DNA of 64,000 nucleotides from Verrucomicrobium sp. Its GTDB lineage: Bacteria; Verrucomicrobiota; Verrucomicrobiia; Methylacidiphilales; UBA1321. Of the stretch, positions 55,052 to 62,542 are shown one piece after another. Position numbers and translations under genes: made by a program. Location of the stretch: the NCBI GenBank assembly GCA_017849585.1, contig JAFIGT010000042.1, positions 124,001-188,000 on the forward strand, given 5' to 3'. Under the pieces are notes generated by a model. The model saw only the letters and a program-made list of their open reading frames with translations. It was not told the DNA's origin and did no database searches. Position 1 is the first letter of the stretch; every line of letters starts with the position of its first letter.

Positions 55052-55150
55052 CAGGGGAGTTTTAAGAGATTTCCAGTTTTCCTTGCCACCAACAAAAAAT
55101 CTCGCGTAATATTGGTTATTGCGATGACTGTAAAGATTTGAAAACACTCG
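55052..55150 (-). pseudogene. N-terminal fragment of a tyrosine integrase
   Basis: The minus frame reads SNLYSHRNNQYYARFFVGGK followed by ENWKSLKTPL, the arm-type DNA-binding N-terminus seen in tyrosine recombinases of this phylum. The rest of the gene (core-binding and catalytic domains) is absent. The frame extends 55016-55243, but only this part is recognisable. It lies between lacI and the tRNA-Ser fragment, where an integration junction is expected. Confidence 0.65.
55062..55079 (+). repeat. 18-bp direct repeat, copy B
   Basis: TTAAGAGATTTCCAGTTT, identical to 45140-45157. Here it lies in the integrase remnant, where the minus strand encodes NWKSLK. Confidence 0.7.
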
Positions 55151-55286
55151 TTTTCGTCCAAATGGATGATTCTGCGTGTGCTGAGTTTTCAACGTTTTCC
55201 TTTCAAATTCAAGGAAGCCGCAGAAGACACTGCATAAAATCAAATCAGAGACTTGTTTCGCAACGTAAGTTGCTGAAGTCAGTAAT

Positions 55287-55328
55287 GGACAGGTGGCTGA
55301 GTGGTTGAAGGCACTCGACTCGAAATTG
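55287..55328 (+). pseudogene. 5' half of tRNA-Ser (CGA), truncated at the anticodon loop
   Basis: The sequence starts GGACAGGTGGCTGAGTGGTT, continues through a normal D-arm and an anticodon stem to CTCGAAA (anticodon CGA), and then leaves the tRNA pattern: the 3' stem reads TTGGA instead of TCGAG, and no variable arm, T-arm or acceptor follows. This is the look of an attachment-site remnant of an element that integrates at the anticodon loop. Confidence 0.75.
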
Positions 55329-55732
55329 GAGTTTTATTTTTTCAAGTTTTTCCGTCCTTTTCCAAATCTTTTCCATAAAGCGACTTGCGATAATTTTGAT
55401 TTCCGAGGTTTGCCGTGGTTTTTCGTATTTTTCCCGATTTTTAGAGCCAGACCGTATAAACACACCGTATAAAAATCAGGGGGCAACGGACAAAAACCCG
55501 GCTTCGTCCGATTTTTCACGTATGAAGTTCTAACTTTCCATGCCTGACAGAACATATAGCTGAATCAGAAAATTACGGCTTCATTGCCTCGAAAATTGAA
55601 GGCCAGCATCAAAGGCTGCTTAGTCGAGACAAAATAGATGTTTATCTTCCAGAGAATATTTGCATGAATCGCCCTATCCAGCGCACGGATCGAGCAAACT
55701 TTGGAACGAAATAAAAGGGGGAAGCACAAAAT
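55329..55732. other. AT-rich non-coding junction with a 13-bp-spaced direct repeat
   Basis: No convincing gene is seen. ACCGTATAAA occurs twice, at 55451-55460 and 55464-55473, three bases apart. The stretch before the GHKL gene includes its ribosome site GGGGGAAG at about 55718. Minus-strand frames here are short and Lys-rich without recognisable homology. Confidence 0.5.
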
Positions 55733-57781
55733 ATGAGTGATTATTTCACAATTAATAAACGACTGATTGCTGGGATACTTACCAAATATCGGACAACGCT
55801 GGATGCCTTTTGTGAATTGGTTACCAATTCAATTCAGGGAAAAGCCAAAAATATTTGGATCGAAATTGCTACGACCGAAATTTTGTCAGGTACTGTTGGT
55901 TCAAATTATAAAAAAATTCAAATAAAGGACGATGGCGTAGGCGTTTCTAAAAGTGAATTTAAAGCCAAAATTCTTGATATTGCTACAGACTCAAAAAAGG
56001 AACAAGGAGGGAAGGGTGTAGGTCGTTTCGCCGCGCTACAATTAGGCTCTAAGATGATGATCGAAACGATATCCAAAGATCCTTTAGATAATAGATACTA
56101 CAAAGCTGAACTGGTCGTTGATACCAAGCAATGGATTGACTCGAAGCCACTTTATGAAATTCCACTAAATGTAATATTTACAGAGGCTTCGCCTAGTAGT
56201 GTAACCGGATATTCTGTCGCGATTGATAATTTTTATTCAGCTAGCGAAACTAAACTCGAAAAACATCTCAGAATGCTAAAGTGTTTTGGGACTGATGAGT
56301 TCGAGAGGATATTATTTGAACGATACACAGATGTTATTTTAAGGGAGCAGGTATATTTCCATGTCAATGGAAAAAAAATAGATGCAAAAAATTATCTGAT
56401 AGGAGAAGTAGAATCATCTACCGCTACTTTTACAGCCCATGATGCTATCGAGCACGAATTATCTTTTCAGTACATGCAGGTAAAGGGGAATGTAAAAAAA
56501 CATAAAGTGTTCCTTAGGGTTCAAAACGGCACTATCTCTACCGTGGCGCATTCATATGACTATGCGGGAGATATTCCTGCAGATAATCAATGGATTATGT
56601 TTGTTGATTCACCTTATTTTGGAACAGATACAGATAGTTGTCGGGGACTATTTATGTCTGAGCTAAACCCAGACACGCCACTTATTACGTCAAAAATAAA
56701 AGAATCAATAGACACATTTTTTTCAAAGAAATATGAAAAATACTACGATTTCACCGCGAATCTAAAGAGTGATTCAGCGTATCCCTACCGCGAGAAGGCT
56801 CCTTCATCATCCTCAAAAAGTTCAGTCTTCAACCAACTGGCTTATTATATCGAAGAGGAACACCACCTCTTGAAAAAAAGAAGTGATCTAAGAAATTTGG
56901 TATATGGGCTTATCGATCGCTCTTTGAATATTGGCGGATACAATGAACTAATTACTACCGTCTTGAATATTAATGGTCCAACAGTTACGAAGTTTAAAGA
57001 ACTACTAGAGCAAGTGGATGTAGAGGATGTGGTTACTTTTTGCGATGAAGTTAGAGTGAAGGAGCAATTTTTAGATTTCCTTTTTAAAATCAATTACGAA
57101 AAAATCTCAAACTATGTTTATGAGCGATCTCAGCTGCACAAGATCGTACAAAAAAACTTATGGATCTTTGGAGAACAATACAATAATAGCCCTATTCTAT
57201 TTTCGGATAAGAATCTACAGAATAATCTGATACATATTCGTAGCAGCTTATTTAATTATGCTCCTACGGTGGAGGATGATAATGTTGTTGACAGCTTTGA
57301 TGAAGATCTTAAAGACATCACCGATTTATTTTTCTTTAATGAGAAGATAGTTGGTGACGCTCAAAAAGAAATAATGATAGTCGAGTTAAAAGCTCCAAGA
57401 GTTAAGTTAAATCAGAAAGAACTTAGTCAGGCCGAGCGTTATGCTTTTCAGATTAGAAGTACAGCCGCATTTCCTGATGGATTAGTTTATAAGATTATTT
57501 TGATTGGGTCTGATATTGCTCCATTCGTAAGAGAGAAACATGCTCAGATTGACCCCCGAAATCCCTTTCTTGTCTATCGGACGGCATCTCCTAAAATAGT
57601 GGAAGTTTGGGCCATGAAATGGTCTGACCTCATCGACGTAAACCACCGCAAGCTCTCATATATGAGTAACCAGCTTAAGACAAAAGATCGGGAAGTAAGC
57701 GAGTATTGGCAGGCTAATTATGGAGAGGTGCCGACAAAAGGAATTTTTTCGAGCCTTGAAAATGATAAGAGGGATGACTAG
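55733..57781 (+). CDS. GHKL-type ATPase fused to Shedu/DUF4263-like PD-(D/E)XK nuclease
   Basis: 682 residues. The N-terminus is a GHKL ATPase: Glu28 and Asn32 in FCELVTNSIQ (Mg-binding N-box), KDDGVGVS (G1) and GGKGVGRFAA (G2 lid), followed by an S5-like transducer region to about 250. This resembles MORC/Hsp90-type ATPases. The C-terminus has LHKIVQKNLWIFGEQY, an Asp in ITDLFFF, then Glu551-x-Lys553 in IVELKAPR and a Gln in AERYAFQI. These match the Shedu/DUF4263 nuclease order (D, ExK, Q). The gene is strikingly AT-rich compared with the chromosome and stands alone next to the integration junction. An ATP-gated anti-phage nuclease is the best guess, but this is inference. Confidence 0.8.
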   Translation: MSDYFTINKRLIAGILTKYRTTLDAFCELVTNSIQGKAKNIWIEIATTEILSGTVGSNYKKIQIKDDGVGVSKSEFKAKILDIATDSKKEQGGKGVGRFAALQLGSKMMIETISKDPLDNRYYKAELVVDTKQWIDSKPLYEIPLNVIFTEASPSSVTGYSVAIDNFYSASETKLEKHLRMLKCFGTDEFERILFERYTDVILREQVYFHVNGKKIDAKNYLIGEVESSTATFTAHDAIEHELSFQYMQVKGNVKKHKVFLRVQNGTISTVAHSYDYAGDIPADNQWIMFVDSPYFGTDTDSCRGLFMSELNPDTPLITSKIKESIDTFFSKKYEKYYDFTANLKSDSAYPYREKAPSSSSKSSVFNQLAYYIEEEHHLLKKRSDLRNLVYGLIDRSLNIGGYNELITTVLNINGPTVTKFKELLEQVDVEDVVTFCDEVRVKEQFLDFLFKINYEKISNYVYERSQLHKIVQKNLWIFGEQYNNSPILFSDKNLQNNLIHIRSSLFNYAPTVEDDNVVDSFDEDLKDITDLFFFNEKIVGDAQKEIMIVELKAPRVKLNQKELSQAERYAFQIRSTAAFPDGLVYKIILIGSDIAPFVREKHAQIDPRNPFLVYRTASPKIVEVWAMKWSDLIDVNHRKLSYMSNQLKTKDREVSEYWQANYGEVPTKGIFSSLENDKRDD

Positions 57782-61780: not shown

Positions 61781-62542
61781 ATGAACAAACACATCGTATT
61801 CACCCAGGGCAACAAGGGCGGTACCGGCAAAACCACGATTCTGTCTACCCTCATTGACTGGTATCGCCACCACGAGATTCCCATAGAAACAGTGGATTTC
61901 GACAGCGAAAACCGGAACAACGCCGGCTTGTCATTTTTCCACAAAGATGCCGAGAAGATTGATGTTCACATGAGAGAGGGCCTTGACGCTTTTTTCAAAA
62001 TTGCCGATGAGACCGAAGCCGCCGTCATCGTGGTCGATATGGGTGCCGGTTTCGGTCGACAAACCTCTGACTGGTTCAACGCCGCCTACGACGATTGTAG
62101 CGCCCAAGGGATCACCTTTACCTCCATTGGCGTTATCACCGATGATCCCGGTTCCGTTACCGGACTGCTCACTTGGGCACAGTTCTTGAAGGACCGGGTT
62201 AAATATGTGGTAGTGCTCAACGAGCAGTACAGCGAACGGGCTGATTTCAGCTTTTGGAAAGATACGACCGAGGCGGACCAGTTCCGCAAGATTGCCAGCC
62301 CGGAAATCATCCGCTTCCTGTCCATCAATCCCGAACTGCAACAGAACCTGCGCAATTACGGCGAATCGCTTTACCGCGTGGCCAAACACTTGACGGACAT
62401 CCCGGAATTACAAGGCACTATCAATGCGGTGCGAGCCAATCGCGTGATTCGCGCCGCCTTCGCCGAGTTTGACCGGGTTAAGCCTCTACTGTTGCCCGCC
62501 ATCGACGAGTTGCCGGGCAACGAAAAGAAAGGCCACCGATGA
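61781..62542 (+). CDS. ParA-like P-loop ATPase (TraL/StbB type)
   Basis: 253 residues with a deviant Walker A, NKGGTGKTT (residues 11-19), TVDFDSENRNNAG (the A' region) and VIVVDMGAGFG (Walker B). The rest follows the MinD/ParA fold. Such ATPases move or position plasmids and mobile elements, and several conjugative systems carry a ParA-like TraL or StbB protein beside the relaxase. The stop overlaps the next start by four bases, so translation is coupled to the 168-aa gene. Confidence 0.85.
   Translation: MNKHIVFTQGNKGGTGKTTILSTLIDWYRHHEIPIETVDFDSENRNNAGLSFFHKDAEKIDVHMREGLDAFFKIADETEAAVIVVDMGAGFGRQTSDWFNAAYDDCSAQGITFTSIGVITDDPGSVTGLLTWAQFLKDRVKYVVVLNEQYSERADFSFWKDTTEADQFRKIASPEIIRFLSINPELQQNLRNYGESLYRVAKHLTDIPELQGTINAVRANRVIRAAFAEFDRVKPLLLPAIDELPGNEKKGHR

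What the first reader, a model, noticed from the sequence alone, without database searches (positions are those of the whole stretch)
55733..57781. Single-gene GHKL ATPase fused to a Shedu-like nuclease: candidate anti-phage defence system
Seen: GHKL boxes (Glu28/Asn32, DDGVG, GGKGVGR) at the N-terminus and the nuclease order D, ExK (551-553), Q at the C-terminus in one AT-rich gene placed at an integration junction. Known: Shedu/DUF4263 nucleases and prokaryotic GHKL/MORC-type ATPases are both found in conflict systems. Inferred: ATP-driven dimerisation gates DNA or RNA cleavage on infection. I am not aware of a characterised system with this exact two-domain layout.
Basis: partly seen in the sequence, partly recalled or inferred. 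Interest (0 to 1): 0.85.

Follow-up and report, generated by a model that had tools for sequence, protein, structure and literature searches.

The report
Mobile-element ATP-gated anti-phage nuclease gene
A mobile DNA element in this bacterium carries a single gene that joins a MORC/Hsp90-like ATP-driven clamp to a DNA-cutting domain; the same layout was predicted in 2008 and shown in 2025 to block phages in another bacterium, so this is a distant new member of a known kind of bacterial defence protein.

Summary
Window 55733-57781 (+) encodes an intact 682-aa protein with a GHKL ATPase (PF13589, 5e-15; E28, N32, DDGVG 66-70, GGKGVGR 92-98). It ends in a PD-(D/E)XK-type domain (D531, E551-L-K553, Q566, invariant in 18 aligned family members). 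An AlphaFold model matches MORC ATPase modules over residues 6-339 (Z 18); the nuclease half is modelled less well. The gene is the first one inside a 64.75-kb conjugative element inserted in the anticodon loop of tRNA-Ser(CGA). Related genes lie in restriction-modification clusters, conjugative plasmids, Pasteurella prophages and the E. coli P4 psu-int hotspot, so a defence role is likely. The novelty claim fails: the layout is paraMORC3 (Iyer 2008), and VcSduA of V. cholerae, with the same layout, needs its GHKL Glu and nuclease Lys for phage defence (PMC12137116). The "Shedu" label is partly right: this protein has no SduA/DUF4263 profile hit; the link rests on distant profile similarity and on relatives. 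What is new is small: a deep, well-supported clade (here plus Bacteroidota) with an ATP lid about 8-13 residues shorter and Gln replacing the usual N-box Asp. Activity, trigger and substrate are untested.

The parts
55053..55326 (+). attL: left copy of the ~275-bp imperfect direct repeat (83% identical to attR on the same contig, C23:243799-244076)
   Evidence: blastn of element ends, 279 columns, E 1e-68; alignment
55287..55326 (+). 5' half of tRNA-Ser(CGA), cut at the anticodon loop; [quoted passage not shown]
   Evidence: exact 27-base pattern occurs twice in the genome; ARAGORN finds the full tRNA only at attR
55715..55724 (+). Shine-Dalgarno-like AAGGGGGAAG before the ATG
   Evidence: direct reading of the sequence
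55733..57781 (+). GHKL ATPase - PD-(D/E)XK nuclease gene, 682 aa (paraMORC3-type, VcSduA-like)
55802..56098 (+). GHKL ATPase core (residues 24-122): E28, N32, DDGVG 66-70, short ATP lid, GGKGVGR 92-98
   Evidence: PF13589 5.1e-15; motif alignment
56384..56752 (+). S5-like transducer (about residues 218-340) completing a MORC-like ATPase module
   Evidence: AlphaFold model; VIA-align to MORC3 5ix2_A Z 18.1 over residues 6-339
56753..57097 (+). helical linker (about residues 341-455)
   Evidence: DSSP on the AlphaFold model
57098..57712 (+). PD-(D/E)XK-type nuclease domain (about residues 456-660): E464, D531, E551xK553, Q566
   Evidence: HSDR_N_2 3.5e-5; invariant residues
58190..61078 (-). MobF/TraI relaxase-helicase of the host conjugative element, convergent with the gene
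   Evidence: TrwC 3.9e-65, MobF NF041492 185 bits against a cut-off of 100
61781..62542 (+). ParA-like ATPase of the element (a ParB lies further right, outside the window)
   Evidence: CbiA/ParA 4.5e-5; ParB_N 8e-21

Best explanation
It is a paraMORC3-type, VcSduA-like single-protein defence nuclease carried as cargo just inside the left end of a conjugative element. Shown here: the GHKL+S5 module, the PD-(D/E)XK active-site pattern, carriage on the element, and the defence or mobile-element setting of relatives. Inferred, mainly from VcSduA and MORC/Hsp90: two subunits join through their ATP-bound GHKL domains and close a clamp on DNA, and ATP binding or hydrolysis licenses the C-terminal domains to cut invading phage (or rival plasmid) DNA. 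The trigger is unknown; in classical Shedu it is a DNA end sensed by the N-terminal region.
For: GHKL family match 5e-15 and nuclease match 3.5e-5, with catalytic-pattern residues invariant in 18 family members. Predicted fold of residues 6-339 matches MORC3/4/2 structures, Z 16-18. VcSduA has the same layout: GHKL E27A and nuclease K557A each abolish anti-phage activity, and growth curves indicate that host cells survive (PMC12137116). The gene lies inside a 64.75-kb element with integrase, MobF, TraC, coupling protein and TrbI. It is patchy: 1 of 60 near relatives (its own genome), 14 of 388 in its phylum, 17 of 395 in the class of Aquimarina. Relatives sit in an HsdM-HsdS-HsdR cluster (L082) and beside Eco57I-type methylases with GmrSD and PstI-type genes (L006) or a SNF2-type helicase and SMC-like ATPase (L077). 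Others sit beside a type ISP RM gene on a conjugative plasmid, in a Pasteurella phage and prophages, and between psu and int of an E. coli P4-like satellite, a known antiviral hotspot (PMC9122126).
Against: No activity has been measured for this protein or its close clade. The nuclease domain model is modest (pLDDT 64, Foldseek best E 0.03), so the fold match there is weak. No defence-system profile hits the window protein itself. Some clade members stand alone in ordinary chromosomal surroundings (L003, L078). The clade lacks the usual N-box Asp and has a shortened ATP lid, so VcSduA's mechanism may not carry over unchanged.
Confidence: 0.75

Rival explanations
1. A restriction endonuclease of the GHKL type (like BbrUII/HgiDII) that cuts a specific site and depends on a partner DNA methylase.
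For: The GHKL part gives a weak BbrUII/HgiDII match, several relatives hit PADLOC REase_II models through the GHKL domain, and some lie beside methylases.
Against: 18.2 bits against a cut-off of 550. No DNA methylase was recognised among about 25 element proteins scanned with Pfam (not every ORF), and clade members such as L003 and L078 show none alongside, judged by eye from the ORF list only.
Confidence: 0.1
2. A maintenance or transfer gene of the conjugative element that processes DNA or excludes rival elements, with phage defence a side effect or absent.
For: It sits next to the MobF relaxase and attL, and an Alisedimentitalea relative sits among type IV secretion genes.
Against: It is AT-rich cargo convergent with the relaxase, not in the transfer operon, and the wider family is mostly not tied to conjugation genes.
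Confidence: 0.1
3. A MutL-like DNA repair protein of the host.
For: GHKL matches to MutL/PMS2 structures by profile and a weak TIGR00585 hit.
Against: TIGR00585 scores 19 bits against a cut-off of 180; absent from all other near relatives searched; found on mobile elements.
Confidence: 0.03

Closest known systems
VcSduA of Vibrio cholerae WASA lineage (proposed Shedu type I-D; PMC12137116)
   Same: Single protein, N-terminal GHKL ATPase, middle clamp, C-terminal PD-(D/E)XK; near-identical positions of key residues (E27/K557 there, E28/K553 here); mobile island.
   Different: VcSduA is reported to carry the DUF4263 signature and is tested; this protein has no SduA profile hit and is untested.
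paraMORC3 family (Iyer, Abhiman, Aravind 2008; PMC2292703)
   Same: GHKL + S5 + C-terminal RE-fold nuclease with E-D-ExK; sporadic in bacteria; some in RM operons, some standalone.
   Different: This protein belongs to a deep clade with a shorter ATP lid and Gln for the N-box Asp.
Classical Shedu SduA (PF14082; PDB 8ps4, 8ti8)
   Same: PD-(D/E)XK core with D, ExK, Q in the same order; short profile-profile match over the active site.
   Different: Classical SduA has other N-terminal domains and no GHKL ATPase; sequence profiles do not recover the window protein.
Eukaryotic MORC ATPases (MORC2/3/4)
   Same: Predicted GHKL-S5 module of residues 6-339 superposes, Z 16-18.
   Different: MORCs have no fused nuclease; identity about 12-16%.

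Membership tests
paraMORC3 (GHKL-nuclease) | N-terminal GHKL domain with intact ATP-binding motifs | tested here: met
   PF13589 5.1e-15; E28, N32, DDGVG, GGKGVGR
paraMORC3 (GHKL-nuclease) | S5-fold domain after the GHKL domain | tested here: met
   AlphaFold model aligns with MORC3 5ix2_A over 6-339, Z 18.1, 288 residues, rmsd 4.4
paraMORC3 (GHKL-nuclease) | C-terminal RE-fold nuclease domain with E-D-ExK | tested here: met
   E464, D531, E551xK553 and Q566 conserved; HSDR_N_2 3.5e-5. The motif is met; the fold itself is only weakly matched
paraMORC3 (GHKL-nuclease) | wide but sporadic distribution, RM-linked or standalone | tested here: met
Shedu (SduA) | signature SduA_C/DUF4263 domain by profile search | tested here: not met
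   No PF14082 or PADLOC SduA hit to this protein at E<=1; two of 18 family members hit PF14082 weakly and three hit a PADLOC SduA model
Shedu (SduA) | homologous nuclease core at profile-profile or fold level | tested here: inconclusive
   hhalign 83.7%, E 8e-6, only 43 columns; VIA-align to Shedu 8ti9_C Z 5.0 among similar scores for other proteins
Shedu type I-D / VcSduA | GHKL Glu and nuclease Lys both needed for phage defence | not testable with these tools
   Shown for VcSduA only (PMC12137116); equivalent residues E28 and K553 are present
BbrUII/HgiDII restriction enzymes (NF050001) | score above curated cut-off (550 bits) | tested here: not met
   18.2 bits
MutL (TIGR00585) | score above curated cut-off (180 bits) | tested here: not met
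   19.2 bits

The most novel reading that the evidence does not exclude
The clade to which the window gene belongs is a mechanistically distinct GHKL nuclease: with a short ATP lid and no N-box Asp it may close its clamp differently (for example ATP binding without normal lid-gated turnover), and in some hosts it may work with the UvrD-type helicase encoded next to it (L002, L005).
Probability: 0.15. Interest if true: 0.5.

Novelty: new member of a known kind. Interest (0 to 1): 0.3.

Why it matters
It extends tested GHKL-nuclease defence (VcSduA) to a deep, untested clade on a conjugative element, and offers a natural variant (short ATP lid, Gln in the N-box) for asking how ATP turnover controls the nuclease. 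It also shows that the defence-gene profiles tried here (PADLOC 2023, Pfam SduA_C) miss this clade.

Tried and rejected
The whole-family alignment was too divergent for a viral-contig scan. PDB sequence searches with the single protein and with the nuclease profile found nothing. Fold search with the nuclease domain alone gave no match at E<=0.001; best rows were McrC, FokI, MspJI, EndoMS and Cap4 mixed with RPB5 and unrelated proteins, so it neither proves nor excludes the fold. A search of relatives with the chromosomal flank found mainly the tRNA half, so the empty site was not worked out in detail. The promoter scan was below the chance level. Gu et al. 2025, which defines Shedu types, is not held. 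RNA as target was considered and dropped: nothing points to it.

Full report
Observation. The gene at window 55733-57781 (+) is an intact 682-codon ORF with a good ribosome-binding site. Pfam finds HATPase_c_3 at residues 24-122 (5.1e-15) and HSDR_N_2 at 527-575 (3.5e-5, marginally below its curated cut-off). Eighteen full-length family members, this one included, align end to end; N32, D66, G68, G70, G95, G97, R98, W477, F479, D531, E551, L552, K553 and Q566 are invariant, and all 18 hit HATPase_c_3 while 14 hit HSDR_N_2. E28 is replaced by Gln in three relatives (L012, L019, L020), so it is conserved but not universal.

Structure. AlphaFold with 15 sequences gives mean pLDDT 73. Residues 6-339 align with the MORC3 ATPase cassette (5ix2_A, Z 18.1, rmsd 4.4, 288 residues), and MORC4, MORC2, TRAP1/Hsp90 and MutL-type proteins follow. 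This supports a MORC-like GHKL+S5 module. The nuclease domain folded alone is poorer (pLDDT 64); its best Foldseek rows include PD-(D/E)XK enzymes (McrC, FokI, MspJI, EndoMS, Cap4) but none is significant, and Shedu 8ti9 appears only at Z 5.0. The nuclease assignment therefore rests mainly on the sequence pattern and the HSDR_N_2 match.

Relation to Shedu. The window protein has no hit to PF14082 or to PADLOC SduA models. The family profile matches a Shedu profile built from four PF14082-type proteins with 83.7% probability (E 8e-6) over 43 columns around D-ExK-Q. A Photobacterium relative hits PADLOC SduA at 1.5e-8, and a GHKL protein in a same-class genome (L025/L046) reaches the SduA_C cut-off (27.5 bits with neighbours) and lies next to a HamA gene. 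So a common nuclease ancestry is likely, but the signature test is not met by this protein and it is not filed as Shedu proper.

What is already known. Iyer et al. 2008 described paraMORC3: GHKL + S5 + C-terminal RE-fold nuclease with E-D-ExK, partly in RM operons and partly standalone (PMC2292703). The 2025 Nature Microbiology paper PMC12137116 showed that V. [quoted passage not shown] E27A and K557A abolish it; growth curves indicate that host cells stay viable; the dimer is modelled as an entwined clamp, and ATPase control of the nuclease is hypothesised; homologues occur in about 1.2% of genomes examined. A 2026 review summarises classical Shedu as a DNA-end-sensing nuclease whose N-terminal clamp is thought to set specificity (PMC12904381).

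Setting. A 27-base stretch of tRNA-Ser(CGA) occurs twice in the genome, at C23:179299 and C23:244049. The two copies lie in ~275-bp repeats, 83% identical and ending at the anticodon loop; only the right copy has a complete tRNA. Between them are 64.75 kb, 51% GC, holding a MobF relaxase, ParA and ParB, a TraC-like ATPase, a coupling protein, TrbI, an integrase at the right end, two RND efflux pumps, a heavy-metal P-type ATPase and a protein with a weak CHAT-domain match. The gene is the first large ORF inside the left end, convergent with the relaxase. It is absent from the other 59 near relatives searched.

Relatives' contexts. Beside Eco57I-type methylase, GmrSD_N and PstI-type genes (L006); with a SNF2-type helicase, Eco57I methylase and SMC-like ATPase (L077); inside an HsdM/HsdS/HsdR cluster (L082); after a type ISP RM gene on a conjugative plasmid (L029); next to type IV secretion genes on a plasmid (L030); in Pasteurella phage Pmp14 among tail genes and in related viral contigs (L031, L034-L038); in an E. 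coli P4-like satellite between psu and int, 11 of 5,426 genomes (L054). Rousset et al. showed that the psu-int slot holds antiviral systems (PMC9122126). These contexts were examined as they came, not as a counted sample, so no enrichment figure is claimed; some members (L003, L078, a Streptomyces plasmid copy L090) have no obvious defence neighbour.

The clade. A maximum-likelihood tree of 25 proteins groups the window protein with four others (two in named Bacteroidota MAGs, one in Aquimarina, one in a same-class genome) at 100/100 on a long branch (1.79); the tree tool warns that long branches meet near this clade, so its place among the other groups is unsure. All five have Gln instead of Asp in the N-box (ExxxNSxQ) and lack most of the ATP lid; in three measured members the D-to-G spacing is 27-29 residues against 35 or more in the others measured. 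Two members (L002, L005) have a UvrD-type helicase gene directly downstream; the window gene does not. Several copies are broken (L005, L006, L059).

Verdict. A likely single-gene anti-phage nuclease of a known kind, in an unstudied clade, on a conjugative element. Function here is inferred by homology and context and has not been measured.

Noticed in passing
window 55053-55326; contig C23:243799-244126: The conjugative element is inserted in the anticodon loop of tRNA-Ser(CGA) and brings its own 5' tRNA half plus ~235 bp of upstream sequence, 83% identical to the other copy, which rebuilds the only copy of this tRNA matched in the assembly.
   Followed up: partly
L052:16338-17423 (C23:244338-245423): A second phage-type integrase gene starts just right of the rebuilt tRNA, suggesting another element abutting the first.
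   Followed up: no
L050/L051 (C23:203952-225428): The element carries two RND efflux pumps, a heavy-metal P-type ATPase and an unassigned ORF (C23:207341-208219) whose start looks like a cation-efflux transporter by eye (not scanned): probable metal-resistance cargo.
   Followed up: partly
L049:14480-18250 (C23:190480-194250): A 1257-aa protein with a weak CHAT-domain match (3.7e-5, just under cut-off) in the element; possible caspase-like peptidase.
   Followed up: no
L002:5135-7237, L005:12055-14148: UvrD-type helicase gene directly downstream of two clade members.
   Followed up: partly
L005, L006, L059, L007: Several relatives are broken by frame changes, a stop codon or (L007) an ORF on the opposite strand that looks like a transposase by eye only; loss may be frequent.
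   Followed up: partly
L003 and L004: 96% identical clade genes in MAGs labelled Cytophagales and Flavobacteriaceae, from recent transfer or binning error.
   Followed up: partly
L046:181-2789: A GHKL protein reaching the SduA_C cut-off stands beside a HamA (Hachiman nuclease) gene; a useful bridge between GHKL nucleases and Shedu.
   Followed up: partly
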